From positions 1 to 58,216 of IMG/VR virus record IMGVR_UViG_3300042887_002068: a DNA stretch of 58,216 nucleotides; one strand, given 5' to 3'. Origin of the DNA: a virus. The notes under the pieces were generated by a model. That model made no database searches, was not told the DNA's origin, and saw nothing but the letters and a program-made list of their open reading frames with translations. Both the position numbers and the translations under genes were made by a program. Position 1 is the first letter of the stretch; every line of letters starts with the position of its first letter. This document shows positions 15,264 to 50,241 of this stretch, piece after piece.

Positions 15264-18200
15264 TTACGTATCAAAACGAACAACAATATTAAGCGGCCAA
15301 TCAATTAAGTTTTTTACAGGTCTTCCCAATTTACCAACAGCTACAAGTTCGTTTCCGTCATACAAGCCAATAGTTGTTATAAACGGAGCCAAATATGAAC
15401 CTGTAGGGTCGTATGATGAACTATATTGATACTCTAAGAAATATGGACTTACTTTTGCATTATCGCTACGACAATATGTGTTCAGATATTCTTTGATTTC
15501 TTTTACATATCTACGTGTAGAGTCTTCGTTAATCAACAAGTTTAATCTGTCTGGAGTAAGACGCTGTAGATAATACAATGAAAGTATGTTTCCATCATTT
15601 AAGTTTATTTTTCCGTCACCATCAATATCAAGTAACCCCGTGTTTACCAAATTATTTTCTATATAATCAAACGCAGTTTTGGTGAATGCATTAAATGATG
15701 AGCTTGCTAAATATGCCGCCTCATCACTTTCCAATAACAACACATCCTCGGATTCAAGTTGTAGTATGTCATTATTCCACCAACTATAATCTTTAAGACT
15801 ATCTTGTTCTAAAATAATTCCATTATCGTCAAACACGAATTCTTCAAAGAATTTTCTCTTTTGCAAATAACGCATTATCAAATCAACGTCATTAAAATCA
15901 AAAACGCCATCTTGATTTACGTCAAACAACAATGAGCTTTGCACAAGTGCAGTAGGATTAATACTATAATTAAATTCTCCCGGTCTAATAGAAATTAGAT
16001 GTTCGTGCTCGTATATTGCATGAGAACCTTGATAATTTAAATCAAATCCACGAGAACCTGTACCAGTGAATATATTGTAATAATTGGACGATGTATTTGT
16101 TAATACAAAATATCCATTCTTATAAAATACATTTCCGATTAATGGGCTGGTCTGGTAATTGCTAAGATTATAAACATAAACTGAACCGGAACAATTTGAT
16201 GGAAACCCCAGTAAGTTATTTGGGTCAGAAATAGACTCTGTGGCCGAGGCTGTGGCAAGGTGTACAACAGGTGCACCAACCGTCAAAAAGTCAGAACAAA
16301 CGCAGACAGAATATCCATAAATATTACTTGGTTTGTATGCTTCTTTGTTTCGCTTTATCATGCCTGTCAGTTTCCAAGCATCCGACGCATCGTCATAATT
16401 ATATACAGTTACTCTACCCAATACTCCGGACGTATCTTCGGACGAAGTTGAAGCGTATGAATAATTTTGTAATACATATTGTCCATCAACATAATCGACG
16501 CTTGTACCGGTTGTGTCGGACCAAGATGTTACCGCAGCAAAATTTCCATCAACAGACACAGATTTTCCAAAATTATTATTTTTTGTATATTGCCTGTCAC
16601 CAAATGTTTTTAGAGATTTCCAATAACTGGATGTTCCGCACTGCGGCATATATCTATAAAAATAAGCTGCCCCAAGAACAGTTGCTCCACCAGAGTATGA
16701 AGAATATGGAATAAATGCCTTATCGCTCAAGCATCCAACAACTATTGTCGGATAACTTACAGAGACCGAAGTTCCAAATCCATCCGTTGTTATTTCTGTA
16801 GAAGTAACATCGTTATTGTATAGTGCAAGAGACATATCCAAGTCTCCGTATGTATTATCTCTTCTGAGTATCTTACATTCTCCCCAAGACGCTGTGGGAC
16901 ATTCTCCGTATGAAGCAGAATAGTATGAGCAAGTGAATACTGCGGCATATCCATTTCCACTCTTGTATGTTCCCACAACTAAACTACCAGAATCTAAAGA
17001 AACACACCATCCGAATTTATCACCGGAAGCAAGCACGCTTGATGTAACGACCGCTTCATATACCCAAGTATAACTACCAGACAATGCGCCAGAAGCAATA
17101 GTTCTTTCATTATATATCGTATATGATCCAGATTCTGTTATAAGTTCTCCACAAAAATCATCCTGTGGGGCAACAGTTTGCCAGAATGAACTGGTTTGTA
17201 TGTTGTCACACCCATTACTAAAATATCTCTTTCTTCTGAAAATATAAACTGCACCAGATCCACTTACATTTGGTGCACCGACCGCCAACGTGTCGTCATC
17301 CAACGCAACAGAATGTCCAAAATAATCATTGTCCGTTGCTCCCTGTAATATATTGACGAGTCCCCAGTTATCTATGCCGCCCTTGTCTCTATTGTATACA
17401 AATACATAGCCAGGAAATGAACCAGACAAACATATAGATCCGGAAGATGAGCCAATCGCGAGAAAATTATCTCTCACCGAGACGGATTGACCAAACGTGT
17501 CTGTGAAATACGAAGAACTTGCCTGAAACTCTGGTATTGAATATGGGAATGTATCATCAACGTCAAAATCAGTGAAAAATCCAGAATCCGTAAATGGACA
17601 ATTAAATTTTTTAACTAGTCTGTGAACTCCGGTATTGTCGTCGTATTTAAATATCGCTGCATATCCCAACGAAGGTCTATACAAGCTATACTTGTCTATT
17701 GAAGACCCAACAGCAACATACTTGTACCACGAACTGACCGATTCACCGAAGTGCTCATTGTCCGATTGAAAATTATCTACAACAGAACTGCTATCAAATA
17801 AAATGGAAGATGTTCCAACATAAGAAACATTCATTCCTATACTGGCATACTCTTTTGCGGAGACTACATCTATTTTATGGACTATGCCATTGCCCAGGTT
17901 CAAATAAAATTCTCCACTTGAAGTATCCCAATATGGTCTTGGATATATGTTTTTTACCCCACCCAAAGTTGTATATGTAGAAAAGTGAGAACCGCTGACA
18001 TACAAATTAGTGTACCCGTCATCTAATATTCTATATTCTTCATGTGGATTTGAGTTGTCGGTAATTACCACGGAGCTTGGTCTTACTTTGTCACCAAATG
18101 CGTTATGATTTAGTGCCAACGAAACAACTCTATCATTTATGCTTCTAACTTCTCTTTTTCCAGTTACTTTATCGGTTGTATAACTTTCTACGCCAAACAA

Positions 18201-18494
18201 CTCAGTGAAGTTGTTCTTGTTTCTATAAAACATAGCGTCAGTGAGACTATATATGTTTCTTGCGTATTTCCCAGAAGGATTGATTGGCTCTAACGAGGCA
18301 GAATAATATGGACTACCGGATGGATAAAAAATAGATGATATTTTCTTACCTTCGTTTATCTCACAAAACTGATTGTAATATGTGCTATATCCATATGCAT
18401 CAACAGAAGACGAATCAACACTTTGAACTGTCCAGTTCTTGAACGTATTGAATGGCCTTATTGTGATATCCCCTGCGGAGAACTGTTTTATCAT
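15264..18494 (-). CDS. Tail/baseplate protein with inserted FG-GAP-like beta-propeller and dockerin-like repeats
   Basis: A 1076-residue protein. The outer parts match the paralogue at 18554-19648: similar start (MIKQF versus MIFKQF), a shared LALNHNAFGDKVRP-like segment, NYSxNPT, and the C-terminal ITTIGLYDGNELVAVGKL. Between them, about residues 190-790, lie at least six FG-GAP-like units (FGHSVALDDDTLAVGAP, FGQSVSVRDNFLAIG, FGTSVSVSYPTIVVG), predicting a beta-propeller. Near residues 856 and 951 are two dockerin-type calcium loops (DVNQDGVFDFND, DIDGDGKINLND), set unusually far apart by some 65 extra residues. The likely location is the virion surface, with calcium-dependent binding or folding. 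The start is ATG 18494; a TATAAATA/ATATTTAT element lies about 11 bases before it and there is no Shine-Dalgarno. Confidence 0.8.
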   Translation of the reverse strand: MIKQFSAGDITIRPFNTFKNWTVQSVDSSSVDAYGYSTYYNQFCEINEGKKISSIFYPSGSPYYSASLEPINPSGKYARNIYSLTDAMFYRNKNNFTELFGVESYTTDKVTGKREVRSINDRVVSLALNHNAFGDKVRPSSVVITDNSNPHEEYRILDDGYTNLYVSGSHFSTYTTLGGVKNIYPRPYWDTSSGEFYLNLGNGIVHKIDVVSAKEYASIGMNVSYVGTSSILFDSSSVVDNFQSDNEHFGESVSSWYKYVAVGSSIDKYSLYRPSLGYAAIFKYDDNTGVHRLVKKFNCPFTDSGFFTDFDVDDTFPYSIPEFQASSSYFTDTFGQSVSVRDNFLAIGSSSGSICLSGSFPGYVFVYNRDKGGIDNWGLVNILQGATDNDYFGHSVALDDDTLAVGAPNVSGSGAVYIFRRKRYFSNGCDNIQTSSFWQTVAPQDDFCGELITESGSYTIYNERTIASGALSGSYTWVYEAVVTSSVLASGDKFGWCVSLDSGSLVVGTYKSGNGYAAVFTCSYYSASYGECPTASWGECKILRRDNTYGDLDMSLALYNNDVTSTEITTDGFGTSVSVSYPTIVVGCLSDKAFIPYSSYSGGATVLGAAYFYRYMPQCGTSSYWKSLKTFGDRQYTKNNNFGKSVSVDGNFAAVTSWSDTTGTSVDYVDGQYVLQNYSYASTSSEDTSGVLGRVTVYNYDDASDAWKLTGMIKRNKEAYKPSNIYGYSVCVCSDFLTVGAPVVHLATASATESISDPNNLLGFPSNCSGSVYVYNLSNYQTSPLIGNVFYKNGYFVLTNTSSNYYNIFTGTGSRGFDLNYQGSHAIYEHEHLISIRPGEFNYSINPTALVQSSLLFDVNQDGVFDFNDVDLIMRYLQKRKFFEEFVFDDNGIILEQDSLKDYSWWNNDILQLESEDVLLLESDEAAYLASSSFNAFTKTAFDYIENNLVNTGLLDIDGDGKINLNDGNILSLYYLQRLTPDRLNLLINEDSTRRYVKEIKEYLNTYCRSDNAKVSPYFLEYQYSSSYDPTGSYLAPFITTIGLYDGNELVAVGKLGRPVKNLIDWPLNIVVRFDT

Positions 18495-34353: not shown

Positions 34354-35874
34354 TTATGGCTGTGGACGACTAAAGCGTTCATAGTCCCTAATAAATGCTT
34401 CTGGAGGAGCTTCTGTGCTATTTGCTTTAGCAGGCTCTATTCTGTTTTGTAGTTGTTCGTTATATGGGTCTTTTTGTTCTATTTGCTGAGAAGGTTCTGG
34501 TGTAGGCTCTGGAGTCGGACTTGGTGTTGGCTCTGGAGTAGCAGAAGGAGTGGGAGATGGTGTTATTGTTGGTTCTGGTATAGCCGTTGGAGTTGGCGTT
34601 ATAACTGGCGTAGCAACTGGCAAAATCTGTTCTTTCTTTTTTCCTACTAATGTATTATACGCTAGAATCAAACACACCGCCAGCGGGTCAAACACAAGCA
34701 TGATAGACCATATGAAATAGTTTACTGCTGTATCTAATGGTACGCCAAGGCTCTTGGCAATAAACTTGAATGTGCCTACATCTGTTTTTACTATCTTGTC
34801 TTTATAATCTGTGTTTTGATTACGTAATGCTTGTATTTCGTTTTGATATTCTATTACCTTTTTCTTTCCGGCTTCTGCTAATTCATCCTTTTTGCTGTTT
34901 AGCGATGATACTTTATTGTCAGACTCTTTGTTGTATGCGTCTATGGACGCCATTATTTCTTCAATATCCTTTTCAAGTTTCTTGATGTTTGCTTCTATAT
35001 CTCCACGCTGACCTTTGCTTCTAGTTTCTATTACTGCTACACGGTCATTATACTCTTTCATCTGCGACGCATATTGCTCACGCAGTTTGGTTATTCTGTC
35101 TTGAGATGATTTTATCTTTTCATCTATTTCAGCACGTTCTTTTGCTTGACCTTCTTTTACAACTCTGGCTTGGTTTAGTCCATTTTTACCAAACAAACCA
35201 CCTGTGCCTTGGTCCATCCATTTCTGAACTTCTTTATCCAATATTTCCAATCTGGCATTGAATAGTTTTATCTGCTCAAGCTCTCTGGCTATATCAGTAT
35301 CAGTTGAAGATTTTGATATTTCAAGAGCTTGTTTTGCCGCTGCTATATCTGCTGAAGCATCCTGTGTTGTATTTGCTGATTTACGAATGCTTTCTATCTG
35401 CTGATTTTTTTGTGCTACAACTTGAAGTTTTTGTTCTATGAACTTTTTTCTGTTAGCATCAATGCCCGCTATTTCTTCTGAGTTATAATCAGACTTCTTG
35501 ATAGTTTCTATTTCTTTCTCAAACTCTGCTATCTTGGTATTATTAGATTCTATGTTTTGTTCGTATCCTTGAACGGCAATAGATGTTGCCGTGTATCCAG
35601 CACTCAAATATCCATATATACCAATGGAAGTTATGCCCATCAGAAACAATGTGGCAAGCAACATATATGATTTCATCCACCATCCTATTTCTTTCCACTT
35701 TTGTTTTAGAAACGTGGCAGTAATAATTTTACCAACTTCAAGGGCAGTTCCCATTATAATAATAGACAACCCGCCGCCAACAAAAAGCAGCTTCAATCCT
35801 ATGATGCTAAAATAAGCACCACAGATTGATATGGCAATACCGCTTAATAATACTAAAAATGCTAAGATATTCAT
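34354..35874 (-). CDS. Membrane-anchored coiled-coil protein with Pro/Thr tail
   Basis: A 506-residue membrane protein. Three helices lie near residues 3-22, 27-50 and 70-92. A long coiled coil covers residues about 105-375 (Lys/Glu/Gln-rich, with WMDQGTGGLFGKNGLNQARV inside). A fourth membrane segment follows near 384-408 (YFIWSIMLVFDPLAVCLILA). The tail (about 418-465) is PTPSPTPEP-rich. Similar four-helix/coiled-coil proteins occur in large T4-related phages, but the function is unknown; an inner-membrane role during infection is inferred. An ATATTTAT box is 6 bases upstream of the ATG and there is no Shine-Dalgarno. Its neighbours are the deformylase operon and a tagged protein. Confidence 0.75.
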   Translation of the reverse strand: MNILAFLVLLSGIAISICGAYFSIIGLKLLFVGGGLSIIIMGTALEVGKIITATFLKQKWKEIGWWMKSYMLLATLFLMGITSIGIYGYLSAGYTATSIAVQGYEQNIESNNTKIAEFEKEIETIKKSDYNSEEIAGIDANRKKFIEQKLQVVAQKNQQIESIRKSANTTQDASADIAAAKQALEISKSSTDTDIARELEQIKLFNARLEILDKEVQKWMDQGTGGLFGKNGLNQARVVKEGQAKERAEIDEKIKSSQDRITKLREQYASQMKEYNDRVAVIETRSKGQRGDIEANIKKLEKDIEEIMASIDAYNKESDNKVSSLNSKKDELAEAGKKKVIEYQNEIQALRNQNTDYKDKIVKTDVGTFKFIAKSLGVPLDTAVNYFIWSIMLVFDPLAVCLILAYNTLVGKKKEQILPVATPVITPTPTAIPEPTITPSPTPSATPEPTPSPTPEPTPEPSQQIEQKDPYNEQLQNRIEPAKANSTEAPPEAFIRDYERFSRPQP

Positions 35875-37575: not shown

Positions 37576-39801
37576 TTATGGACCATAACGTATGATGATT
37601 CTTACATTACTTGGTGCTGAAATACCTGTAACATTAACAAGTGCTGAACTACTATCCGTTGAACTAGTCATTCCATCAAAGGTACGTGTGGCGACAACTT
37701 TGTATGTTCCACCAGTATCTATTACGACTGGTGATACGGTGTATGTCGATGATGTAGCACCAGATATAGCCACATTATTTCTATACCATTGATATGATAT
37801 TGTACCTGCTCCAGAATCTGTAACAGGCGGGGCAGGCGTTGCGGACACGCCGCTTACATCCTGAAATCCAGTCGTTCCTCCATTAATGAGCGTACTGAAT
37901 GATAGTGGTGTTAATATACCGTTGGCTGTGTTTACTGTATACCACTGACCATTATCAAAGGATTGACCATACAACGTTGAACCGGCTGGACCGAAGGTGA
38001 TCTGAAGCCTACCTATTATCGGAGAACCAACTGTGCCTATATTCGTGGCAGCTATAGTACCACTTAACGGACCAGACGGCAGAGTCAGATTATAAAACAT
38101 AGAACCGTTGGAAGTAGTGGCATATAATGTACCATTACTAGTAATGGCTATGTCTCCAATATAATTGTTGTTTGTTGTAGGTATGCCGCCCGTGAGCGTA
38201 GCGGACGAAATGCCATTAGAAACCATTGTAGGGGTTCCTGATCCGTCATATTGTAATGCGACTCGCACCAGCATATGTGTACCCGGCATAATATACCAAT
38301 AAGCATTATTCCAATATGCTCCGTTGTCTGGTCGGCTGGTGGTCAATTGCCCCAAATTGACTGGTGTAGAATTGGCAGCTTGGTTCCAATACCACAAAGA
38401 CGCCAGACCACTTCCACTCGGATTGGGTGCCGCAAAAAATACTTGACCTCGGGTAGTATCAAACGCTATTCCGTTTATTGCGTTTGTTGATGTTGCACCT
38501 ACAAGAGTAGACACATCTCGCACAGCCCTCTTTGTTCCAGTATCGCTAATTTCATAAATATTGTTGTCTGTACCAACAGTATAATAATACACCGATACTG
38601 ATGCGAAGGATGATAGTGTAAGTGTATTTCCAAACTCAACACTTGTAGCAACAGGCTGAACGGTAAAGATAGGTGCCTTTAATGTTCTAACAACGTTTAC
38701 TGTTGCTGTGTTGCTGTCTGTAAAACTGGATACACCATCTATAGTACTGGTTGCTCTAAGTTTATACGCACCAGAGTCTACACTGGCAGCGGCACTCACA
38801 GTATATGATCTAGAAGTTGCTCCTGTTATAATAACATCATCTTTGTACCATTGATATGTTGGAGTTGGTGTACCAGTAGCCAACCCAGATAATGTAAATG
38901 ATTGATTGAGATCAATGGTCACGGAGGATGGTTGAGCAGTAAATACTGGTGCCGCAAGGGTTCTAACTACGGTTACTGTTACTATATTACTATCAACTGA
39001 ACTGGATGCTCCGTTTAGTGTATTGGTGGCAACAACCTTATAATCGCCGCCATTGGCACTAACAGCAGAACTTACGGTATATGATGTAGATGTTGCTCCA
39101 GTTATAGCGACGTTGTCTTTATACCATTGGTATGTTGGAGTTGGAGTGCCGGTCGCTAATGCCGATAGTGTAAATGACTGTGTAAGATTTACTGTTGCGG
39201 CGACGGGTTGCGTAGTAAATGTGGGCGGCACCAAAACTTCTATGACAGTAACTGCCACTGCATTACTGTCCGTAGACACTACCGTTCCGCTAACAGTATT
39301 ACTTGCTGATACTTTGTATGTGCCCGCGTCAGCAAGAACTGCCGATGATACTGTATATGTAGCAGATGTTGCACCTGATATAGCGACATTATTTTTAAAC
39401 CATTGATATGTTGGTGGAGAGTCGCCCGTGGCAAGAGATGATAGTGTAAAAGATTGGCCGACAGATGCGTTAGTAGCAACTGGTTGTAGTGTAAAAACCG
39501 GCGGATTGACAACACTTAAATTTGCAATATTTGAAAGACTACTTCCTAACGAGTTACTAACTTCTACGGTATATGCGGCAGCATCCGATATTGTAACATT
39601 CGCCAGCACATACGATATAGATGTTGCACCGGCAATATTCGTTCCTCCTTTTTTCCACTGATATGTAAACGGGGGTGTTCCGCTGGCGGTAGCATCAAAA
39701 GTAACAGTCTGACCAACTTTAGCAACCGGACTAACGTCTTGAGCATATGCCATACTGCATAATGCAAGTATATAAAAAAGTATCTTGATATAGTTCTTCA
39801 T
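37576..39801 (-). CDS. Secreted multi-Ig-domain protein
   Basis: A 741-residue protein with a clear Sec signal peptide (residues 1-20, hydrophobic ILFYILALCSM, cleavage AYA|Q). Four Ig-like domains follow (about 22-98, 99-190, 191-285, 286-375), each with the FTLSxLATGxxPPTYQWxK and AGTYKV-type signatures. Residues 395-650 are propeller-like beta repeats (NAINGIAFDTTRGQVFF, GDIAITSNGTLYATTSNG). A last Ig domain (about 660-730) closes it. This layout is common in Verrucomicrobia and other bacterial surface proteins. The gene has its own promoter and terminators on both sides, like a moron. Export during infection, for instance to change the cell surface, is inferred; a virion role is less likely because of the signal peptide. 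Confidence 0.85.
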   Translation of the reverse strand: MKNYIKILFYILALCSMAYAQDVSPVAKVGQTVTFDATASGTPPFTYQWKKGGTNIAGATSISYVLANVTISDAAAYTVEVSNSLGSSLSNIANLSVVNPPVFTLQPVATNASVGQSFTLSSLATGDSPPTYQWFKNNVAISGATSATYTVSSAVLADAGTYKVSASNTVSGTVVSTDSNAVAVTVIEVLVPPTFTTQPVAATVNLTQSFTLSALATGTPTPTYQWYKDNVAITGATSTSYTVSSAVSANGGDYKVVATNTLNGASSSVDSNIVTVTVVRTLAAPVFTAQPSSVTIDLNQSFTLSGLATGTPTPTYQWYKDDVIITGATSRSYTVSAAASVDSGAYKLRATSTIDGVSSFTDSNTATVNVVRTLKAPIFTVQPVATSVEFGNTLTLSSFASVSVYYYTVGTDNNIYEISDTGTKRAVRDVSTLVGATSTNAINGIAFDTTRGQVFFAAPNPSGSGLASLWYWNQAANSTPVNLGQLTTSRPDNGAYWNNAYWYIMPGTHMLVRVALQYDGSGTPTMVSNGISSATLTGGIPTTNNNYIGDIAITSNGTLYATTSNGSMFYNLTLPSGPLSGTIAATNIGTVGSPIIGRLQITFGPAGSTLYGQSFDNGQWYTVNTANGILTPLSFSTLINGGTTGFQDVSGVSATPAPPVTDSGAGTISYQWYRNNVAISGATSSTYTVSPVVIDTGGTYKVVATRTFDGMTSSTDSSSALVNVTGISAPSNVRIIIRYGP

Positions 39802-40583: not shown

Positions 40584-41258
40584 TCAACTTTCTCGCTTCG
40601 CAACGTCGTGTTCAGCGTTGCAGGCCATATAGTCTGCAACGTGAATAAGACGAGCAAGATTGTTCTTTAGACCCTTTTCTGGGTCATAAGTCTTCAGATA
40701 AAATTCAGCCGCTTCATCATACATTCCATCAGACAACTTGATCGCCAATGTTTCTTTCCAAGTAAGCACAATACCAAACCGCTGTAGATTGTATAATGCT
40801 CTATCCGTAACTCTCCAGAACTGATTTTTTGTGTTATTCTTAAAGAGCAATCCCTGCTTATTCATGGACCATTCGTCTGTATTGGGAATATAATATGGCC
40901 CAGTTTCATCGCCAAGTTTCCCCAAATCGTGGTGAAGTGCCGCCATAATACGCTCCTCTTCTGTATAATCAATCTCGCCGCCAAGAGTTTCATAAAGCTT
41001 CTGCACTCCGCGACTTGCACGTTCTACATCAAGTACGTGATGAATATATCCTCCGATATAAGCATTATGATAATTCTTTTTTCCAGAAGCGGGGGCAGTT
41101 GCCAGTTGTAATCCAAGATTATTCTCGGCGTACATATTCAACAACTTTTCAAGTCTATCTCCGCTAAACTTTTCCTTCAAAAATTCAAGAAAGTATTCGT
41201 AATTTTCCTGAACTTGATTTTCTGTCAAATCTGAACCTGTATGTAGTGTTTTATTCAT
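40584..41258 (-). CDS. HD-domain phosphohydrolase
   Basis: A 224-residue metal-dependent phosphohydrolase. The HD-family ligands are visible: His64 and His73/74 (HNAYIGGYIHHVLDV), the HD pair at 110-111 in ALHHDLGK, and a late Asp in HVADYMACN. Such proteins cleave nucleotides or cyclic messengers; the substrate cannot be told from sequence. It has its own promoter (TTGACG-16-TATGTT) and terminator, a single-gene early-type unit between the glycan operon and hsp20. No Shine-Dalgarno is seen. Confidence 0.86.
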   Translation of the reverse strand: MNKTLHTGSDLTENQVQENYEYFLEFLKEKFSGDRLEKLLNMYAENNLGLQLATAPASGKKNYHNAYIGGYIHHVLDVERASRGVQKLYETLGGEIDYTEEERIMAALHHDLGKLGDETGPYYIPNTDEWSMNKQGLLFKNNTKNQFWRVTDRALYNLQRFGIVLTWKETLAIKLSDGMYDEAAEFYLKTYDPEKGLKNNLARLIHVADYMACNAEHDVAKRES

Positions 41259-41312: not shown

Positions 41313-43010
41313 TCAACACTCTTTTCGTATTTCTTTGGAGTAATGATACACTCTATTATGATTTACTAATGATGCCATAAGTACTGCACTACGCAGTCTT
41401 CCTTTTTTCATTGTTTGATATGCGTGGCTCATGATAGTTTGCTCAAACGGAGAAGCATATACCGTTTCAAGAAATACCTTATAATTTCCCGCCTTTGTCA
41501 TCACACTTGGCCAATTGCTATAATATACATCGCCAATCAAATAACTTACGCCATCTATGCAGCCTGAATTTTTCCATTTCATTCTATGTGTACCATCTGG
41601 GAAATATTTGTTTTTTACATTCTGTGGCACATTGTGCCATGCCCATTGCTTGTGATGATCGCCAAAAAATTCACTGAATGAAATTTTTATAAAGTCCAAT
41701 TTTTCTTCTTCAACGATATTGATGCATTTATCCACCCAGTTGTCTATATGCATATTCAGTCCATTTTTACATAACACATTCTTATCCTGCATAAGCATAT
41801 CATCTTCAAACCATATGATATATTTTGACCCACTATCGTGAAAATGCTGTGCTGCCCACTGACGTGCTCCGCATACGCCCATATTTCCTTTACGTATCAA
41901 TTCAAATCCATACTTCTTGGCAATATCATCAAATGCTGGTTTGGTTGTTTCGTCCGTGCTATTATCTATAAGATATTTGTTGTTTATACGCAACAATTCT
42001 GGATTATATTTTTCCATACTATCTATCAATAGCAATAGTTGCTGTGGCAAATTAAAGCAGGTGATATACAAGTTTACTCCCTTGCCCGACTTGTTCATGG
42101 CAACTTCTTCTTCGCTTTGAAAATACTCAATATCCTCTGGAACGTCTTGTTTTGGTATGCTTATTTCATACTTCGGAACTGGCATCTGCTTTACTCTTTC
42201 AAAAAATGTTGAAACCAGCCCGTTTCCTTCTATCATTTCTATATTGGTCAATTCTGGGCAAAGGTATGTAATAAGCGTGAAAATACTTTCTTCTGTGCCC
42301 ATATATCCTTCACTCAACGTATTGTTTAGAAGATTATAGTATATTCCATTTATCTGTGATAATACTTTCTTGTTTCCGCCAAAAAATCCTCCTCGCGCAA
42401 CACGGTTTACTTTTGCGTTTGCGTATCTGTTCATTGCATCAATCTTGAAGCCGTGTATCTCGCTGGTTGTTTCGTATGGATAGCAAACGAACAAGAACTT
42501 CTTCAACATCGGCTCTAATTTTTGAATCACGTTGTCGTGACTAAAATAGCCAGGATGCACCGTCTGGGTAAGGCCAGCATCTATCCAGCAATAATTTTCA
42601 GAATCAAACGGGTTGAAAATTGCTGCGTCGTTTAACAAGAACATCTTGCTCATTACAAGCGGGTTATATAATTCAAGTTTTGCTTGCGTTGACTCTGCCA
42701 GCCATCCTACTTGATTGTACCAATTGGGATCTTGACGTATTTTATTTACTTTATCATACAGACTAAACCACGTTCTGAAATCTTCGGGTTTTTTAGTACG
42801 AACGTCTGTGCCAACGGACCCTTCTCTTGCTTTTAAGACAAAATCGACGTGCGACTCATCCACATACACTAATATCGGTGTGTTTTTACACGCACGCAAT
42901 AGTTTATCAAAGTGCTGAAGATATTGACTAAATGGACGCTTGAATCCAGTATCCATTTCTCCACGCTTCAAATCAAATAGTCCTGTCACCAATGTTGTAT
43001 TATAGTTCAT
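41313..43010 (-). CDS. Two-domain glycosyltransferase (HtrL/YibB-like plus GT2-like)
   Basis: A 565-residue protein. Residues 1-270 resemble the HtrL/YibB family (TLVTGLFDLKRGEMDTGF, FDKLLRACKNTPILVYVD, NYCWIDAGLTQTVHPGYF), suspected glycosyltransferases of surface polysaccharide clusters. Residues 305-480 form a GT-A domain: VNLYITCFNLPQQLLLLIDS, GNMGVCGARQWAAQHF, and the metal-binding FEDDM near 399. It is the last gene of the four-gene glycan operon, starting one base after the carbamoyltransferase stop. Donor and acceptor sugars unknown; the target may be virion or host-surface glycan. Confidence 0.85.
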   Translation of the reverse strand: MNYNTTLVTGLFDLKRGEMDTGFKRPFSQYLQHFDKLLRACKNTPILVYVDESHVDFVLKAREGSVGTDVRTKKPEDFRTWFSLYDKVNKIRQDPNWYNQVGWLAESTQAKLELYNPLVMSKMFLLNDAAIFNPFDSENYCWIDAGLTQTVHPGYFSHDNVIQKLEPMLKKFLFVCYPYETTSEIHGFKIDAMNRYANAKVNRVARGGFFGGNKKVLSQINGIYYNLLNNTLSEGYMGTEESIFTLITYLCPELTNIEMIEGNGLVSTFFERVKQMPVPKYEISIPKQDVPEDIEYFQSEEEVAMNKSGKGVNLYITCFNLPQQLLLLIDSMEKYNPELLRINNKYLIDNSTDETTKPAFDDIAKKYGFELIRKGNMGVCGARQWAAQHFHDSGSKYIIWFEDDMLMQDKNVLCKNGLNMHIDNWVDKCINIVEEEKLDFIKISFSEFFGDHHKQWAWHNVPQNVKNKYFPDGTHRMKWKNSGCIDGVSYLIGDVYYSNWPSVMTKAGNYKVFLETVYASPFEQTIMSHAYQTMKKGRLRSAVLMASLVNHNRVYHYSKEIRKEC

Positions 43011-43011
43011 A

Positions 43012-44613
43012 TCAACGTTTTTTTATAAATACATTTTCCACAATTAACCCATCCATGCGAGTATTATCAAACACGTTAAATGCTTCTTTGATGGTGGACA
43101 ATACTGGCTTACCATTTACATTAAAGCTTGTATTAAGAAGCACGCCAATGCCATTTATTTTTTTGACTTCTCCAATTAAATCATATAACCACGGATTTAC
43201 TTCTCTTCGCAAGGTCTGCACTCTTGCAGTTTCATCTACGTGTGTTATTGATTTTAGTTTTTCCTTATACTCAGTTCTTACTTTGAACGCAAAGCTCATA
43301 TAAGGAGATTCTTGTAGCATTTCGAAGTATTGGTCCGCGTCCTCATATCTCACTACGGGAGCAAACGGTCTATACCATTCTCTGTTTTTAACTTTCGCGT
43401 TTAGTATGTCTTTCATTTGAGGAAAGCTTGGATCGCATATGATACTTCTGTTCCCCAACGCTCGTGGCCCGTGTTCGGCATTTCCTCGTGCGACACCAAC
43501 AATCTTTCCGTCGCAAATATATTTGGCAAGTGTATCAAGATTTACATCGTGAGTTATATCGCACGTATACGAATGCTCGTAAATGTAATATCCAATAGAA
43601 TCTATATCCAAAAGCGGCATACCGGAGTAAATTAATTCAACGGGCTTTTCTGGTTTTAATACATGAAGAATTCCTCCCGCTGCCAACCCACAATCACTTG
43701 GGTTAGGTGGAATAAACATATTTCTGTTGTATCTCTTTTTTATTTCCGTGTTTAGCAATACATTAAGTGCACACCCACCCGTCATTCCTATTGCATAATC
43801 TGGGTATTTCTTGATATGTTCATCAACAACTTCAAAAAATACATCTTCAAATGCCTTTTGTGAAGTGGCGGCAATATCATATGCCATTTGACCATCAATT
43901 CTATCTTTTGCACTAAAAATTATTCCCGTTTTTGCACTTAGCTCTGCGATTTTTTCCTGTATGTTTTTTGTGTATACCTTGATTTTATAAAAATCCTTGA
44001 AGGCATTAAGCCATTCTGTTCTTATGGTTCCATACCCACACAATCCCATCAATTTTCCGCTATACACAAGATTGCCATCATCAAACCCAGATTCTTGTCT
44101 TATTGGTTTCAGATAGTGACCAAAAGTCATATATGCACCCATATCATATTCAGCAGAAAACAACAATTTTGGTGGCTGCTGTTTGCTTTCACACGCATAT
44201 CCGTTGAAAAATCCATCATTTCCACCGCCGTCAAATGATATTATTACCATTTTTTCATATGGCGATTGATAATATGTTCCAACCGTATGCAAATAATGGT
44301 GAGTTAAATCGTGTAATGGCTGCTTGTGTGGAATATTGTCTTCGTATTTTACATATATGCTTTCGCCGTTTATTACATTAACTGAATGAGAATAGCTGGT
44401 GACACAGGTATCAAACATTTCTATTCCATATCTACGCTTGATATATTCACATATTTGCTTTACGTGTATGTCTCCGACTGGAATAGATTTATACTGACTA
44501 ATTCCAGAATTTTTATATCCGTTGAATCTTTCTGCTTCAACTACATAAATTTTATCGCCTATATTAAATGCTATTGCACCGTTGTGGGAGCCGTGGATTG
44601 AAACTGTTTTCAT
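43012..44613 (-). CDS. Carbamoyltransferase (NodU/CmcH/TobZ family)
   Basis: A 533-residue enzyme that uses carbamoyl phosphate and ATP to carbamoylate a sugar or similar hydroxyl group. The N-terminal ASKHA-type domain has HGSHNGAIAF, HHYLHTVGTYYQSPYE and FDGGGNDGFF. The C-terminal part has EHGPRALGNRSI (about 379-389), WYRPFAPVV and LLNTSFNVNGKPV. Length is normal for the family. Its ATG overlaps the upstream GT25 stop by 4 bases. Together with three glycosyltransferases it suggests a carbamoylated glycan on the virion or host surface, as in rhizobial Nod factors or O-antigens; a DNA-modifying role cannot be excluded. Confidence 0.95.
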   Translation of the reverse strand: MKTVSIHGSHNGAIAFNIGDKIYVVEAERFNGYKNSGISQYKSIPVGDIHVKQICEYIKRRYGIEMFDTCVTSYSHSVNVINGESIYVKYEDNIPHKQPLHDLTHHYLHTVGTYYQSPYEKMVIISFDGGGNDGFFNGYACESKQQPPKLLFSAEYDMGAYMTFGHYLKPIRQESGFDDGNLVYSGKLMGLCGYGTIRTEWLNAFKDFYKIKVYTKNIQEKIAELSAKTGIIFSAKDRIDGQMAYDIAATSQKAFEDVFFEVVDEHIKKYPDYAIGMTGGCALNVLLNTEIKKRYNRNMFIPPNPSDCGLAAGGILHVLKPEKPVELIYSGMPLLDIDSIGYYIYEHSYTCDITHDVNLDTLAKYICDGKIVGVARGNAEHGPRALGNRSIICDPSFPQMKDILNAKVKNREWYRPFAPVVRYEDADQYFEMLQESPYMSFAFKVRTEYKEKLKSITHVDETARVQTLRREVNPWLYDLIGEVKKINGIGVLLNTSFNVNGKPVLSTIKEAFNVFDNTRMDGLIVENVFIKKR

Positions 44614-45284
44614 TTTCTAAATTCGGTTGCAAATTCCGCATAGGTGGACGTTGTATAATAATGATATGTAGTTTTTCTCTTTAGTAGATCGGAAAAATCT
44701 TCAACGGGCCATCCGTGATTTATAAGAATTGGATACGAGGATATGAAATTTCTGGTTTTTTGCAGAGTCGTATAATAATAATGATCCAATTGATCATACT
44801 TTTCATATGACCAATTAAGAATATCTTGGTACATACTTTCTTTTACGACCAGCGCGTGCGCCGATTTGGCAGATTGAATCTTTCCTACATTTTCGTCCAA
44901 TTTTACCAACGGAGAATGTAATATTGTACCAAAAAACATTGCATCCCAATTTATTTTTTCGGATTGCTCCAAAAATTTCAAAACGGTGTCTTTGTATGGC
45001 AAATGATAATCTCCAATTCCAGTGGATGGTGGATCCATCACATAAAAATCATCTTCACATATAAACACAGATTTCCATCCACGAGATATGGCAATGCGTA
45101 CAATTTCTTTGTGCGCTTCTCCACATCCCGCATACTCACCTTTTACTATTCCCGGCATCCTTTCCATACCAGAAATTTCAAACTTAGCAAATTGGTCTTC
45201 ACATTGCTTCTTGCGATCAGTGCGATGATCCATATTGATATAAAACCCACCATCCGCTACTTTTTTATTGTAAAATGTGATCAT
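44610..45284 (-). CDS. Glycosyltransferase family 25
   Basis: A 224-residue GT25 enzyme of the LPS-biosynthesis type. Signatures: GFYINMDHRTDRKKQ (residues 14-28), GCGEAHKEIVRIAISRGWKS, and the EDD metal-binding triad in VFICEDDFYV (about 73-82). It overlaps both neighbours by 4 bases (45281-45284 and 44610-44613), so the operon is translationally coupled. It probably adds a sugar before carbamoylation or extension by its partners. Specific linkage unknown. Confidence 0.88.
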   Translation of the reverse strand: MITFYNKKVADGGFYINMDHRTDRKKQCEDQFAKFEISGMERMPGIVKGEYAGCGEAHKEIVRIAISRGWKSVFICEDDFYVMDPPSTGIGDYHLPYKDTVLKFLEQSEKINWDAMFFGTILHSPLVKLDENVGKIQSAKSAHALVVKESMYQDILNWSYEKYDQLDHYYYTTLQKTRNFISSYPILINHGWPVEDFSDLLKRKTTYHYYTTSTYAEFATEFRK

Positions 45285-46585
45285 AGATGTCCAACAATTC
45301 TATCTCCCCAGTTCTTAGATTGACTATGTGGCCACACAACCCAATGATGCGGCTTTTCTGATGTGTTGAATGTTCTCCAAAGCTTGATATATTTATCTCC
45401 TTTTGGATCTCTTGCTTCTTTCAATAATCTGTCTATTTCGGCTTTGTCCGCATCTTGTCTATGTATCACCGAGTTATCTTCTCGCTCAAACGCAACGCAC
45501 CAAAAATCATAATCATCCAGTTTAAACCCGTTAATCGGTAGATCTATACAATGCTTGAATATTTGCAAGAATGAATCTTCCCATTCTTTTTCAGTTTTGT
45601 ATTTGTGATATTTGTTGGGAGGGTATGCTTTGTCTATTGTTTCTTGTTGAACCGCACGTTTTCCAAAATGTAACCCTGCATACTTTTCATAATCTCTCAA
45701 CGTTCTGACTTTTCCAAATCCATATTTGCCCCATTTTATGGTTTCGTGTTTTTCGCCATCCATAGAGAACAATATACGATTGCGTCGATGGCACAAATGA
45801 TTTCTTTCTCCCCAATCTTTTTTGTCTGGAATTTTACTGGTATTTCCCGCACCGTGGTCGTCCCAATGCTTTGTTCTTCCTTTACGAGTATATTCGTGCC
45901 AAGCAACTAACCCGTGTGGATGAAACAAATCATATCCCCAAGTAAATGCACGCACTGCAATACTTATCTCTTCACCGTGAAAATAATATTCAGGATCATG
46001 TGGAACTTCTTTACAAAACTTTCCGGTTGTAAATGCAAAATGTGCAGAATAAAACCTAGCCGGAACAGGAGCGGAAAGTTCTTTCCAGTTATCTATAGAA
46101 GCTGGCAAAAAGAATACAGCACCTTCTGGAATAAATCTATCAAAATCCATTCTCCAAGGAGTTTGTACTCTTGCTTCCGGATCTTTGTCTGGATCAAACG
46201 AAGGAATATATCCAGTAAGTAATGGCTTCTTGTGTCCCATTTTTTGCAGTTGTTTATACATTCCAATAATCACTTCGTCCCAGTCTTTAACAAAACGATG
46301 ATGTGAATCTAATTGCAATGTATATTCTTCATCTTCATACCGCTGTTGTATTTGATTACGTGCCCAACAAGCACCTTTACTTTCCATATATGGAATATCA
46401 ATAATTTTTACACTTGGAAGATCTTTGATCTCGTCAATTTTTTCTTCCGGTGAATGTTGCCAAGCAATACAAAAAACAAGATTTTCTGGATGCTTTGCAT
46501 TTGCTATGCAGTCCTTTATTGTAGGAACTAGTTGAGGATCACGATAGGCCGCTATTTGTATGAAGATTTTTCCATTAGAACTCAT
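45281..46585 (-). CDS. Skp1-type GlcNAc transferase family glycosyltransferase
   Basis: A 434-residue GT-A enzyme of the GlcNAc-transferase (Skp1 GnT-like) family, known from eukaryotes, giant viruses and phages. Signatures: IFIQIAAYRDPQLVPTIKDC (8-27), GACWARNQIQQRY, LQLDSHHRFVKDWDEVI (about 90-106), and YYFHGEEISIAVRAF near 205. It is the first gene of the glycan operon. Upstream, TATAGT at 46600-46605 lies next to a 16-bp palindrome. No Shine-Dalgarno is seen. GlcNAc as donor is the family habit, not proven here. Confidence 0.88.
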   Translation of the reverse strand: MSSNGKIFIQIAAYRDPQLVPTIKDCIANAKHPENLVFCIAWQHSPEEKIDEIKDLPSVKIIDIPYMESKGACWARNQIQQRYEDEEYTLQLDSHHRFVKDWDEVIIGMYKQLQKMGHKKPLLTGYIPSFDPDKDPEARVQTPWRMDFDRFIPEGAVFFLPASIDNWKELSAPVPARFYSAHFAFTTGKFCKEVPHDPEYYFHGEEISIAVRAFTWGYDLFHPHGLVAWHEYTRKGRTKHWDDHGAGNTSKIPDKKDWGERNHLCHRRNRILFSMDGEKHETIKWGKYGFGKVRTLRDYEKYAGLHFGKRAVQQETIDKAYPPNKYHKYKTEKEWEDSFLQIFKHCIDLPINGFKLDDYDFWCVAFEREDNSVIHRQDADKAEIDRLLKEARDPKGDKYIKLWRTFNTSEKPHHWVVWPHSQSKNWGDRIVGHL

Positions 46586-46638: not shown

Positions 46639-47433
46639 TTAACAAGATCTTGCAGATAAATATGCTGTACCCGATGCGTTCCTAGTTATAATATAACCGC
46701 ATGTTAAATTGGTGTATGTTCCGCCAGGTACACGATTAATAAGTATGAAATATTGTTCCTCTCCAACTTGGTTAATGTAATAAAATTCTATTACTCCATT
46801 AATACCAGCAACAGCATCAATTTGTTTTGTAGGCAGCAATCCATTGCCAAAATTTGCGGTAATTACAACATTATCAAATGTTGCAAACCCCGTTGCAACT
46901 GGATTAAACAAGCGTGGGTTAGATAATACCACCTCTTCTGGTGCAGTCCAATTTATTAAATGGGAGTTGGCTGCGGGAATTGCTTGTAGCTGCATTTCTC
47001 CAGTTCCGTCATTTGTTATCTGCCCAGTTGGACTGTCTCCATCTATTCTTGATACCGTTCCGTTTCCATTTGCAACGATTGTATATTGAATTTCCGTTTT
47101 AAATGGCGTGCTTGTTGGCGTCGGGGTAGGTGTTCTCGAACTACCCATCGCGGAGGTTGGAGTTATCGTTGGAGTGATTGAAATTGTAGGCGTGGCAGTA
47201 GGAAACGCAGAAGGTTGTGGAGATGGAGTTCTTGACACAATTGGAGTTTTAGATGGTGTAATAGACACCGTTTGTGTTGGAGTTGGAGTGGGTGGTATTT
47301 CTTTCCATCCAATGTTTTTGCTATCATCCGAAACTTTTACGTATAATTTTCCATCATCCGTTGTTATGTCATTTCCTTGCAGACCAAAAACGGAAGAATT
47401 TGGATTTCCGTGAATAACAATTTTTTCTTGCAT
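46639..47433 (-). CDS. Structural protein with Pro/Thr linker
   Basis: A 264-residue protein. Residues 1-45 form a small domain (HGNPNSSVFGLQGNDITTDD, then KLYVKVSDDSKNIGWKEI) shared with the next gene upstream. Residues 46-115 are a Pro/Thr/Ser linker (PTPTPTQT, TPTISITPTITPTS). Residues 116-264 form a beta-rich C-terminal domain with NWTAPEEVVLSNP and GGTYTNLTCGYIITR. The shared head domain probably docks to the same virion site, with the linker presenting a different end. No known enzyme motif. Confidence 0.72.
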   Translation of the reverse strand: MQEKIVIHGNPNSSVFGLQGNDITTDDGKLYVKVSDDSKNIGWKEIPPTPTPTQTVSITPSKTPIVSRTPSPQPSAFPTATPTISITPTITPTSAMGSSRTPTPTPTSTPFKTEIQYTIVANGNGTVSRIDGDSPTGQITNDGTGEMQLQAIPAANSHLINWTAPEEVVLSNPRLFNPVATGFATFDNVVITANFGNGLLPTKQIDAVAGINGVIEFYYINQVGEEQYFILINRVPGGTYTNLTCGYIITRNASGTAYLSARSC

Positions 47434-47436
47434 AAA

Positions 47437-47793
47437 TTATATAGAAAATTCCGGTTCACTCGAACTTGGGGTGACAGTTGGAGTTCTGGTCGGAGTCACA
47501 GATATTGTCGGGGTTACGGTTATGGTTGGAGTAACAGTACTTGTTATACTCGGAGTAGGAGTAGTAGTAGAAGATGGAGTTGGAGATAATGGAACCGTGG
47601 CAGATGGAGTGGGTGTTGGAGTAGGTGTCGGAGTCAATGTACTATTATCTTGACCAACATATGTCCATCCAATATTTCTGCTATCATCTTTGTATTTTAT
47701 ATATAAATTTCCATTGTCCGATCCGAGCAATGAACCAATTATACCGAACACGGATTTTTCTGGATTTCCTCTGGGTGGAATGCTTCTTCTCAT
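47437..47793 (-). CDS. Short head-domain plus Pro/Thr-linker protein
   Basis: A 118-residue paralogue of the preceding protein's N-terminus: RGNPEKSVFGIIGSLLGSDN, then LYIKYKDDSRNIGWTYV (residues 8-45), followed only by a Pro/Thr/Ser linker (LTPTPTPTPTPSATVPLSPT and similar) to the end. It lacks any C-terminal domain, so it may be a decaying or minimal copy. It lies 3 bases before the 264-aa gene and 3 after the 814-aa fibre gene, clearly one unit. Confidence 0.68.
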   Translation of the reverse strand: MRRSIPPRGNPEKSVFGIIGSLLGSDNGNLYIKYKDDSRNIGWTYVGQDNSTLTPTPTPTPTPSATVPLSPTPSSTTTPTPSITSTVTPTITVTPTISVTPTRTPTVTPSSSEPEFSI

Positions 47794-47796
47794 TTT

Positions 47797-50241
47797 TTAT
47801 GGAGTAATAGTTACGTCTACTTCGTAAAATGAACCTGGGTACACGGTACCAGAAGAAGCAAATACGCCAGTTGGATATTTTATCCAGTATAATTGGAATC
47901 TATATATGCCGGGAGACGGAGGCAATATTTTACCATATTGATTGTTCCATCCAACTGCTCTCTGTTCAGTTCCACCGGGCAAAGATTGCCAAGCCGAGCC
48001 GTCCCAGTAAAGTGCTTTACATCTCAATCTATAAGAACCCGTAGCGGTTGCCGCCAAAACCGTAGGATCCGTTGTATAAATATATGGAGGATTGTTATAC
48101 GAGAATGTGGTGGATGACCCCGTGGTAGTACTCAAATATACATTTGGATGTCCAGATGCGGTATAAGCAGGTGCAGTCACTGGAGTAAATCCGGACGCAG
48201 TTGCTATAGACATTGTTACCACGGACCAGGGCGTTGGTTGTACCGTTGGATTATAAGAACTATTATATGTTACCCAATAAAGTTCGGCTGGCCACACCCC
48301 AACTGCCGGTGGAAATATTTCCGAGTAATTATTATTGAATGCTACGGTTCTTTGCTGTGAATTTGAGTTAAATGCGCTGGCCAATTCGTTTCCTGTATTA
48401 CCAGAAATCTTACATCTCAATCTATACCTGAATGAACTTAGTACAGATGAATTTCCTGTATAAACGTATGGCGGATTGTTTAAAGAATACGTTGTATTAG
48501 ACAAATACACGTCGCTGCCAGGAAATGGTGGAGGAGAGAACGTAGAAGCTGTCGCTATGCTCATCGTAATTGTTGTAAATGGTGCACCACCATTCACCGA
48601 TATTACAGGGTAATTTCCATAAATGTCTGGTGTATCTCCGTATTCAACATAATACAAATCTGTAGTATACAATCCAACTGGAGGAACGTCTATTGGAACA
48701 TAGTTAGTATTAAACACATCTGCTCTTTGCTCTAATGCCAAGTTTGGAGCAACGTCCGTCAATTCTGTTGCTTTTACTCTTAACTTCCATCGAGTCAGTG
48801 ATGTTATTGTAGAATTCGTAGTAAATACTGTAGGAGAGTCGTCTTCTCTGAAACTGTTTGCGCTGAGATAAATACCCGGCGGCAATGGAGGTGTCGGAGT
48901 AGGAGTTCCCGTTTGCGTAGGAGTTGGCGTCGGCGGCATCGGAGAAGGTGTTATTGTTACAGTAGGTGTAGGAGTTGGCGTAGGCGAAGGTGGAATATAA
49001 TTTATTGCTCCATACTTTGATGTATATCCTTGGAAACTGAACGTACACGGAGCAGCACTGGCACTATAAAATACATACAAGCTTCTATCCGTATGTGCTA
49101 CACCAAGTTCCAGTAATGGCAATACGCTTCTGCCATAAGATGCACTTACCAGTGGAACTCTGTTATTATTGAATGAATATATTCCACTATCTCCCTCTAC
49201 CGCTACATCCGCTGTAGATCCTATAGAAAACAATGGTTGACCCGGAGAGTATACAAAACAATCGGTTATTACGTAATTTTCCGGTAGAACATTTCTTTGC
49301 GTTCCATTCCCCAAATAACCAGAAGTTCCATCGCTGAAGAATATTAGACCAAACTCCTTGGTAGGACTTGTTGCTTCTGCGCCTTCTCTTGGTATCAATA
49401 GATGATTGTCTCCAATAGAATCTAGCCATTGTGTTGGACCTGGATTAAGGTTCTCTGGTCTATATGAAGAAACCAGCGAGGCGTCGTTGTTTCGTACTCC
49501 ACCATAATAATTTTGAGTCACTTTTGTTCCACTCAATGCGGCGTTGAATACATGTCCTTCATAAATGACAGAGTTGATGTTCCAATGACTTCCGCTCTGC
49601 CCATTTCCCATAGTAGTAAACGAACTGCTGATATAACTTGGCGCACCAGACAACGTACCGACTAAAGCGGAATTTATATAAAATCTAAATGTGCCACTAT
49701 TTTCTTTTGTTATCGTGGCTTCAAATGCTCTGTCCGGATATAATTTTATAAAATCTGGGTATTCTATTATTTTTTCCGTTGTACCATCATTTACGTATCC
49801 AATCAAACTACTTGATTTTACACCGATGTATGCTCTGCTACCATAGTCTGCCATTCCTACTACTTGCGAACCTACGCCAAATAAAACTCTACTACCCGTG
49901 TCGTTTAAAAGTGCGTCCGATGGTATAAATGCTTTAACGGTCAAAGAAAAATTATTTCCCAAGTCATTTGCTTTTCCGTAGCAATACATGCTTAATTCAT
50001 CCAATGGAGCATAATTAGCCGCAAAAGATAATCCGTTAGAACTTTGATAACCGTGCTGCGGCACTGCAAAGTTAGCAAACCCACCAGAAACAACATATTC
50101 GGCCAAATCTGCCGCCGAAATTTTCTTTGTTTCCCCAGTAGGACTTGTTAATTCACTAACATCTACAATAGGAAGCCAGTCGCCATTTGCTACATTTGTT
50201 GAAGTAAGTGTGCGTAGTTCAGTTGTTTTCTGGTTGGCCAT
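47797..50241 (-). CDS. Second tail fibre with LamG-like domain and three C-terminal repeats
   Basis: An 814-residue fibre. The N-terminus (TTELRTLTSTNVANGDWLPI, then KKISAADLAEYV) is a common phage fibre-attachment segment. Residues 60-260 resemble a concanavalin/LamG sandwich (FYINSALVGTLSGAPSYI). A Pro/Thr linker covers about 413-450. The C-terminus holds three related domains (about 455-575, 576-690, 700-814), each with YLS, PP-YVYT, RYRLRCK, QRA-V-FNNNY and LYWV-Y features. Repeated terminal domains suggest multivalent receptor or sugar binding. An ATATTTAT box is 19 bases upstream. Confidence 0.8.
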   Translation of the reverse strand: MANQKTTELRTLTSTNVANGDWLPIVDVSELTSPTGETKKISAADLAEYVVSGGFANFAVPQHGYQSSNGLSFAANYAPLDELSMYCYGKANDLGNNFSLTVKAFIPSDALLNDTGSRVLFGVGSQVVGMADYGSRAYIGVKSSSLIGYVNDGTTEKIIEYPDFIKLYPDRAFEATITKENSGTFRFYINSALVGTLSGAPSYISSSFTTMGNGQSGSHWNINSVIYEGHVFNAALSGTKVTQNYYGGVRNNDASLVSSYRPENLNPGPTQWLDSIGDNHLLIPREGAEATSPTKEFGLIFFSDGTSGYLGNGTQRNVLPENYVITDCFVYSPGQPLFSIGSTADVAVEGDSGIYSFNNNRVPLVSASYGRSVLPLLELGVAHTDRSLYVFYSASAAPCTFSFQGYTSKYGAINYIPPSPTPTPTPTVTITPSPMPPTPTPTQTGTPTPTPPLPPGIYLSANSFREDDSPTVFTTNSTITSLTRWKLRVKATELTDVAPNLALEQRADVFNTNYVPIDVPPVGLYTTDLYYVEYGDTPDIYGNYPVISVNGGAPFTTITMSIATASTFSPPPFPGSDVYLSNTTYSLNNPPYVYTGNSSVLSSFRYRLRCKISGNTGNELASAFNSNSQQRTVAFNNNYSEIFPPAVGVWPAELYWVTYNSSYNPTVQPTPWSVVTMSIATASGFTPVTAPAYTASGHPNVYLSTTTGSSTTFSYNNPPYIYTTDPTVLAATATGSYRLRCKALYWDGSAWQSLPGGTEQRAVGWNNQYGKILPPSPGIYRFQLYWIKYPTGVFASSGTVYPGSFYEVDVTITP

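What the first reader, a model, noticed from the sequence alone, without database searches (positions are those of the whole stretch)
41313..46585. Coupled glycan operon ending in a carbamoylated product
Four overlapping genes encode a Skp1-type GlcNAc transferase, GT25, carbamoyltransferase and a HtrL-like/GT2-like fusion. The tight coupling suggests one pathway making a carbamoylated oligosaccharide. Targets could be virion protein, host LPS (superinfection exclusion) or modified DNA. The HtrL-like plus GT-A fusion is itself unusual.
Basis: partly seen in the sequence, partly recalled or inferred. Interest (0 to 1): 0.62.

Follow-up and report, generated by a model that had tools for sequence, protein, structure and literature searches.

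The report
Phage mucin-type protein glycosylation cassette
A giant phage carries a small set of sugar-adding genes right behind its threonine/proline-rich fibre genes, most likely to decorate the virus particle with a capped, mucin-like sugar coat, and close relatives swap the middle of this gene set wholesale, much as bacteria swap surface-antigen genes.

Summary
The four genes are real. They encode a GT60 polypeptide-type GlcNAc transferase, a divergent GT25, a TobZ/NodU-type O-carbamoyltransferase, and a fusion of HtrL/YibB with a GT-A domain. Two of the three junctions overlap; the third has a 1-bp gap.

The cassette lies 53 bp behind three fibre-like genes with mucin-like Thr/Pro stretches. 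The known GT60 substrates are Thr in T. cruzi mucins and hydroxyproline in Skp1. The predicted GT60 fold matches animal mucin-initiating GalNAc-transferases best. T/P-rich loci carry GT60 in 8 of 120 cases against 0 of 234 proline-rich controls. Five of five long GT60 records encode 4-15 T/P-rich proteins; four GT60-free large phages encode none. Phage XacN1 carries GT60, carbamoyltransferase and HtrL-GT, and its virions are reported to contain glycoproteins. Enzymes needed for the DNA and host-LPS readings were not found.

The unexpected part is modularity. GT60 comes first and an HtrL protein last, while the 1-7 genes between are swapped: 36 combinations in 68 loci. Phages with flanking proteins 97-100% identical carry unrelated middles with breakpoints at gene ends.

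Linkage, sugars and acceptor sites are inferred, not measured.

The parts
45281..46585 (-). GT60 / PF11397 polypeptide GlcNAc-transferase-like enzyme, proposed initiator; D93-S94-H95 motif invariant
   Evidence: Pfam 245.7 bits vs cut-off 21; invariant residues; AlphaFold pLDDT 93.9, best PDB matches are mucin-type ppGalNAc-transferases
44610..45284 (-). Divergent GT25-like glycosyltransferase, proposed extender; E77-D78-D79 invariant
   Evidence: PF01755 below cut-off alone but all 9 family members hit, best 3.7e-16
43012..44613 (-). O-carbamoyltransferase (NodU/CmcH/TobZ type), proposed cap-adding enzyme
   Evidence: Both Carbam_trans domains above cut-off; phmmer to TobZ E 1.3e-48 with HHxxH, D and PSD-type motif aligned; phrog_1601 E 1.3e-119
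41313..43010 (-). HtrL/YibB domain (about residues 4-262) fused to a GT2/GT-A domain (about 310-565); tandem GT-A type protein, conserved last gene of the cassette
   Evidence: Pfam; invariant W142/D144 and E402/D404; AlphaFold pLDDT 90.7, Foldseek to two-GT-A-domain enzymes K4CP and LH3 and mimivirus R699
46639..47433 (-). Fibre-like protein, mucin-like stretch at residues 42-120 (21 T, 17 P, 10 S of 79): proposed acceptor
47437..47793 (-). Small fibre-like protein, mucin-like stretch at residues 43-118 (25 T, 16 P, 12 S of 76): proposed acceptor
47797..50241 (-). 814-aa fibre-like protein with weak laminin-G/ConA match and T/P-rich linker at 410-461: proposed acceptor
34354..35874 (-). Membrane/coiled-coil protein with T/P-rich C-terminal tail (about residues 420-465), possible further acceptor
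40584..41258 (-). HD-domain-like protein, conserved downstream boundary of the cassette
   Evidence: 97-99% identical across a swapped cassette in L030/L031
50324..51130 (-). PhoH-like protein, conserved upstream boundary of the fibre-cassette region
   Evidence: Pfam PF02562; 100% identical in L030/L031

Best explanation
A phage-encoded, cytosolic, mucin-type O-glycosylation pathway for virion proteins. Step 1 (inferred from family and fold): the GT60 enzyme puts an alpha-linked GlcNAc, or similar sugar, from host UDP-sugar onto Thr (possibly Ser) in the Thr/Pro-rich stretches of the fibre proteins encoded just upstream. Step 2 (inferred): the GT25-like enzyme and the two GT-A domains of the HtrL fusion extend the chain. 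Step 3 (family-level inference): the carbamoyltransferase caps a sugar hydroxyl using host carbamoyl phosphate and ATP. Shown here: first and last genes are conserved while the genes between are exchanged between near-identical phages with breakpoints at gene ends. The glycan is therefore a swappable module, probably varied to alter the exposed virion surface.
For: Location: three T/P-rich fibre-like ORFs directly upstream; in the 297-kb relative 4 of its 5 T/P-rich ORFs lie near the cassette. Neighbour enrichment in the close clade: 13 of 14 non-redundant loci, p=6e-5. Reverse test: GT60 in 8/120 TPTPTPTPTP loci versus 0/234 AP- or (K/E)P-repeat controls, p=1.5e-4. Genome level: five GT60+ records have 4-15 T/P-rich ORFs; RaK2, CBB, phiKZ and P-SSM2 (no GT60) have 0. 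Biochemistry: GT60 TcOGNT1 makes GlcNAc-alpha-O-Thr on mucins (PMC9472816); GT60 Gnt1 modifies Skp1 hydroxyproline (PMC6939170). Fold: top PDB matches are ppGalNAc-T4/T2. Experiment by others: XacN1, which has GT60, carbamoyltransferase and HtrL-GT, has at least two virion glycoproteins (PMC5852040). Bacteria: in Saprospiraceae L628 and Jiulongibacter L635 the cassette sits beside a T/P-rich protein with a twin-arginine signal-like N-terminus. Modularity.
Against: No glycan, linkage or acceptor was measured. Most T/P-rich phage loci (112/120) show no GT60 nearby, so such linkers do not require it. In the more distant phage clade T/P-rich genes are not enriched next to GT60 (p=0.25), although two long records of that clade have them elsewhere. 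Foldseek TM-scores to GalNAc-T are modest (about 0.4-0.5) and may reflect the shared GT-A fold. XacN1 has another glycosyltransferase (ORF328), and which of its proteins are glycosylated is not stated in the main text. Virion location of the window's T/P-rich proteins is inferred.
Confidence: 0.77

Rival explanations
1. The cassette glycosylates and carbamoylates phage DNA bases, as T4-type and hypermodified phages do, to block restriction.
For: Phage glycosyltransferases are often DNA-directed; the moraphage paper names this as the reported role of phage GTs (PMC12619734).
Against: No thymidylate-synthase-family hydroxymethylase (PF00303) in the 297-kb relative or two partial records. No TET/JBP hit in 12 records, though that search had no positive control. 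GT60 is a protein-directed family, and the genes lie beside fibre genes.
Confidence: 0.07
2. The cassette remodels host LPS or capsule (serotype conversion, superinfection exclusion).
For: GT25, HtrL, GT10, methyl- and carbamoyltransferases are typical of LPS/O-antigen loci; HtrL is named in A. baumannii outer-core locus papers (titles and counts only).
Against: No transmembrane-like segment in any of the four proteins, hence no GtrA/GtrB-like flippase or lipid-linked step. The initiating enzyme is polypeptide-type and the neighbours are fibres. XacN1 virions contain glycoproteins.
Confidence: 0.1
3. The target is hydroxyproline, as in the Skp1 pathway, or hydroxylysine/collagen-like repeats, as in mimivirus, rather than Thr.
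For: GT60 Gnt1 uses hydroxyproline; some cassettes carry GT_PLOD and GT25 members; HtrL-GT resembles mimivirus R699 and LH3 in Foldseek; acceptor stretches are rich in proline.
Against: No PF13640 prolyl-hydroxylase-type oxygenase in five records including the 297-kb one. No proline-containing collagen repeat was found among the minus-strand ORFs scanned.
Confidence: 0.15

Closest known systems
GT60 polypeptide alpha-GlcNAc transferases (T. cruzi TcOGNT1; Dictyostelium/Toxoplasma Gnt1)
   Same: PF11397 domain far above cut-off; known members initiate O-glycans on Thr of mucins or on hydroxyproline; cytosolic in the Skp1 case
   Different: Phage-encoded, next to fibre genes, first gene of a variable operon; no prolyl hydroxylase found
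Animal mucin-type ppGalNAc-transferases (GT27)
   Same: Best structural matches of the predicted model; same kind of acceptor (T/P-rich); both carry a D-x-H motif (GT27 motif from own knowledge)
   Different: Only 10-15% identity, different CAZy family; donor sugar unknown here; no Golgi
Mycobacteriophage virion glycosylation (Freeman et al. 2023, as cited in PMC12619734)
   Same: Phage-encoded glycosyltransferases decorate virion proteins; glycans influence immune recognition
   Different: There the glycans sit on capsid and tail-tube C-termini; here the proposed acceptors are T/P-rich fibres and the cassette is exchanged between relatives
Jumbo phage XacN1 glycoproteins (PMC5852040)
   Same: Has GT60 (ORF334), carbamoyltransferase (ORF333) and HtrL-GT (ORF330), 15 T/P-rich ORFs, and virion glycoproteins detected
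   Different: Authors linked only ORF328 and ORF334; carbamoylation and T/P acceptors not proposed in the passages read
Moraphages (PMC12619734)
   Same: Freshwater jumbo phages up to 307 kb with PhoH, HSP20 in some, and four core glycosyltransferase orthogroups
   Different: Target of those enzymes left open there; membership of this window in the group was not tested
Bacterial O-antigen / LPS outer-core loci
   Same: Conserved ends, swappable middle genes, decorating enzymes
   Different: Protein-linked rather than lipid-linked product proposed; carried by a virus

Membership tests
GT60 / PF11397 | Match to the curated family model | tested here: met
   245.7 bits vs 21; homologues over cut-off in G001, XacN1, RAS14
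GT60 / PF11397 | Conserved metal/nucleotide motif (DSH in this family) and GT-A fold | tested here: met
   D93, S94, H95 invariant in 34 sequences; model pLDDT 93.9 matching GT-A enzymes
GT60 / PF11397 | UDP-GlcNAc:polypeptide transferase activity | not testable with these tools
   needs enzyme assay
Mucin-type O-glycosylation | Thr/Ser/Pro-rich acceptor proteins co-encoded | tested here: met
Mucin-type O-glycosylation | Sugar attached to Thr/Ser in the acceptor | not testable with these tools
   needs glycoproteomics; XacN1 virion glycoproteins reported without site in the main text
NodU/CmcH/TobZ O-carbamoyltransferase | Kae1-like N-domain and YrdC-like C-domain, metal-binding His/Asp | tested here: met
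   both domains over cut-off; HHYLH at 105, D in SFDGGG at 126, PSD at 305, GPRALG at 382 aligned with TobZ
GT25 | PF01755 match | tested here: inconclusive
   14.2 bits vs 24 for the window protein; all 9 aligned relatives hit, best 3.7e-16
HtrL/YibB | PF09612 match | tested here: met
   65.7 bits vs 24.1; the family itself has no known function
Skp1 hydroxyproline pathway | Prolyl 4-hydroxylase creating the acceptor | tested here: not met
   no PF13640 hit in five records; one hydroxylase family only, and host enzymes not excluded
T4-type DNA glucosylation | Hydroxymethyl-base synthesis (PF00303-type enzyme) | tested here: not met
   absent from the 297-kb relative and two partial records
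GtrABC-type serotype conversion | Membrane flippase and membrane glycosyltransferase | tested here: not met
   maximum 19-residue hydropathy 1.23 in the four proteins
Moraphage lineage | Placement by TerL/MCP/PolB phylogeny | not tested
   markers not in window; paper sequences not held

The most novel reading that the evidence does not exclude
Large phages carry a true mucin-type glycosylation locus that works like a bacterial serotype locus. A fixed initiator and a largely fixed HtrL glycosyltransferase frame an exchangeable set of extenders and caps (carbamoyl, methyl, sulfo, pyruvyl, acetyl, amino), so closely related virions display different sugar coats on the same fibres, with recombination at gene ends switching the coat.
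Probability: 0.55. Interest if true: 0.85.

Novelty: new variant of a known kind. Interest (0 to 1): 0.7.

Why it matters
Protein glycosylation of phage particles is known from few cases. This would be an abundant, virus-encoded version with a recognisable initiator, predictable acceptors and a modular cap, present in environmental large phages and in two cultured phage types. It makes 'what do glycosyltransferases of giant phages modify?' directly testable. It also suggests that virus surface sugars are under diversifying selection, and may give bacterial-cytosol tools for placing designed O-glycans on proteins.

Tried and rejected
DNA modification: searched PF00303 and PF12851 in relatives, nothing found (the PF12851 search had no positive control). 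Hydroxyproline route: PF13640, nothing found. Host-LPS route: no membrane segments. Solved GT60 structure by sequence: none; HtrL profile against PDB sequences: none credible. Promoter and terminator scans no better than shuffles. One region request failed on length. Paper searches on mucin-like phage glycosylation, and on phage carbamoyltransferase with O-glycosylation, found no earlier description in the held library. The gene-poor first 7 kb was checked as a possible odd genetic code and is one giant minus-strand ORF.
Full report
WHAT IS THERE. Four minus-strand ORFs fill 41313-46585 exactly as described. From 5' to 3' they are GT60/PF11397, GT25-like, carbamoyltransferase and HtrL-GT. The first two junctions overlap by 4 nt; the third has a 1-nt gap, so 'four overlapping genes' is nearly right. 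Pfam supports three of the four well above cut-off. The GT25 protein is a divergent member: sub-threshold alone, but its aligned family all hit PF01755. The carbamoyltransferase aligns with TobZ across both catalytic domains with metal-site motifs kept. The window is a 58-kb IMG/VR virus record; a 297-kb contig carries the same block at 81-92% protein identity for the four genes, so this is a piece of a large-genome phage.

THE KEY CONTEXT. Directly upstream, same strand, 53 bp away, are three fibre-like genes. Their products carry mucin-like stretches: 25 T and 16 P in 76 residues, 21 T and 17 P in 79 residues, and a 52-residue T/P linker. In the 297-kb relative, four of its five T/P-rich ORFs lie within about 12 kb of the cassette. 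In 14 non-redundant close relatives, 13 have a T/P-rich ORF within two genes of GT60 (p=6e-5).

TESTING THE LINK THE OTHER WAY. I drew IMG/VR loci by DNA pattern for (TP)5 and, as controls, (AP)5 and ([K/E]P)5. GT60 occurred in 8 of 120 T/P loci and 0 of 234 control loci (p=1.5e-4). At genome level, five GT60-bearing records (G001, G006, G010, XacN1, RAS14) encode 5, 4, 5, 15 and 12 T/P-rich proteins at the strict threshold. RaK2, CBB, phiKZ and P-SSM2, confirmed to lack GT60, encode none; at a looser threshold CBB has 1 and P-SSM2 has 4. Limits: most T/P loci have no GT60 nearby, and the distant phage clade shows no local enrichment (p=0.25).

BACTERIAL CASES. In the genome collection, GT60 relatives occur in Bacteroidota, Burkholderiales and others. 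In a Saprospiraceae genome (L628) GT60 and HtrL-GT face a T/P/S-rich protein. In Jiulongibacter (L635) GT60, carbamoyltransferase and HtrL-GT sit beside another. Both T/P-rich proteins start with a twin-arginine-like signal, which would fit modification in the cytosol before export (inference). Neighbour enrichment in this set is p=0.006. Some of these contigs are MAGs and may be viral.

MECHANISM. Known GT60 enzymes act on polypeptide: GlcNAc-alpha-O-Thr in T. cruzi mucins (PMC9472816) and hydroxyproline in Skp1 (PMC6939170). The AlphaFold model (pLDDT 93.9) matches ppGalNAc-T4, T2 and T12 best in the PDB, with modest TM-scores. No PF13640 prolyl hydroxylase was found in five relatives, so Thr is the more likely acceptor. 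HtrL-GT is predicted as two GT-A domains in tandem; best matches are mimivirus R699, chondroitin polymerase and LH3. R699 is a collagen glucosyltransferase (PMC11838735). HtrL also occurs fused to GT25 and, in L030, in a 370-aa protein with only the HtrL match. Domain orientation is uncertain (pTM 0.55).

INDEPENDENT EXPERIMENT. Phage XacN1 encodes GT60 (ORF334), carbamoyltransferase (ORF333) and HtrL-GT (ORF330) in one run. Its paper reports at least two virion glycoproteins (PMC5852040). This ties a homologous cassette to glycosylated virions, though not to particular sites; XacN1 also has a second transferase (ORF328).

MODULARITY. In 68 loci with a complete run from GT60 to HtrL, 46 gene families (32 with two or more members) make 36 distinct ordered combinations of 1-7 middle genes; 96% of gaps are 20 bp or less. 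Middle genes include GT10, GT25, GT34, GT17, GT_PLOD, FkbM and CmcI methyltransferases, carbamoyltransferase, sulfotransferase, pyruvyltransferase, acetyltransferase and aminotransferase. L031 has PhoH 100%, HD 97%, GT60 91% and HtrL-GT 95% identical to the window, but a different middle. L030 has PhoH 100% and HD 99% but a wholly different middle and a different HtrL gene. DNA similarity stops at or near gene ends: 45281-45297, 43027 and 41310. The carbamoyltransferase is in 13 of 68 cassettes.

ALTERNATIVES. No PF00303 in the 297-kb relative argues against classical hydroxymethyl-base glycosylation; the TET/JBP search was uncontrolled. Lack of membrane segments argues against lipid-linked O-antigen modification. 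Neither is fully excluded.

KNOWN AND NEW. Virion glycosylation by phage enzymes is known (mycobacteriophages, cited in PMC12619734). Moraphages have four core glycosyltransferase families with unassigned targets. What appears new is the link of GT60 to T/P-rich virion proteins and the exchangeable cap cassette; no earlier description was found in the held papers. I rate it a new variant of a known kind.

Noticed in passing
window 1-7272 (-): Giant Ser/Thr-rich ORF (2424 aa, open at the contig end) with an Mtd_N-type N-terminus and long SSSLAAS-type repeats; the plus-strand GTG ORFs there are shadows.
   Followed up: partly
window 7285-9522 (-): 745-aa ORF near whose C-terminus lies a run of more than 20 consecutive glycines.
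   Followed up: no
window 15264-18494 (-): 1076-aa protein with FG-GAP repeats and a dockerin-like match, among phage structural genes.
   Followed up: no
window 37576-39801 (-): 741-aa protein with a signal-like N-terminus and at least four Ig domains.
   Followed up: no
L635 3960-11157 and L628 4507-9089: Bacterial GT60/HtrL-GT (plus carbamoyltransferase in L635) loci facing a T/P-rich protein with a twin-arginine-like signal: a possible general bacterial cytosolic mucin-type system.
   Followed up: partly
L045 2951-6223: 1091-aa multi-domain protein joining GT34/DUF273-type and methyltransferase domains between GT60 and HtrL-GT.
   Followed up: partly
L643-L658: Burkholderia/Paraburkholderia GT60 genes regularly flanked by a large 1050-1210-aa ORF on the opposite strand.
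   Followed up: no
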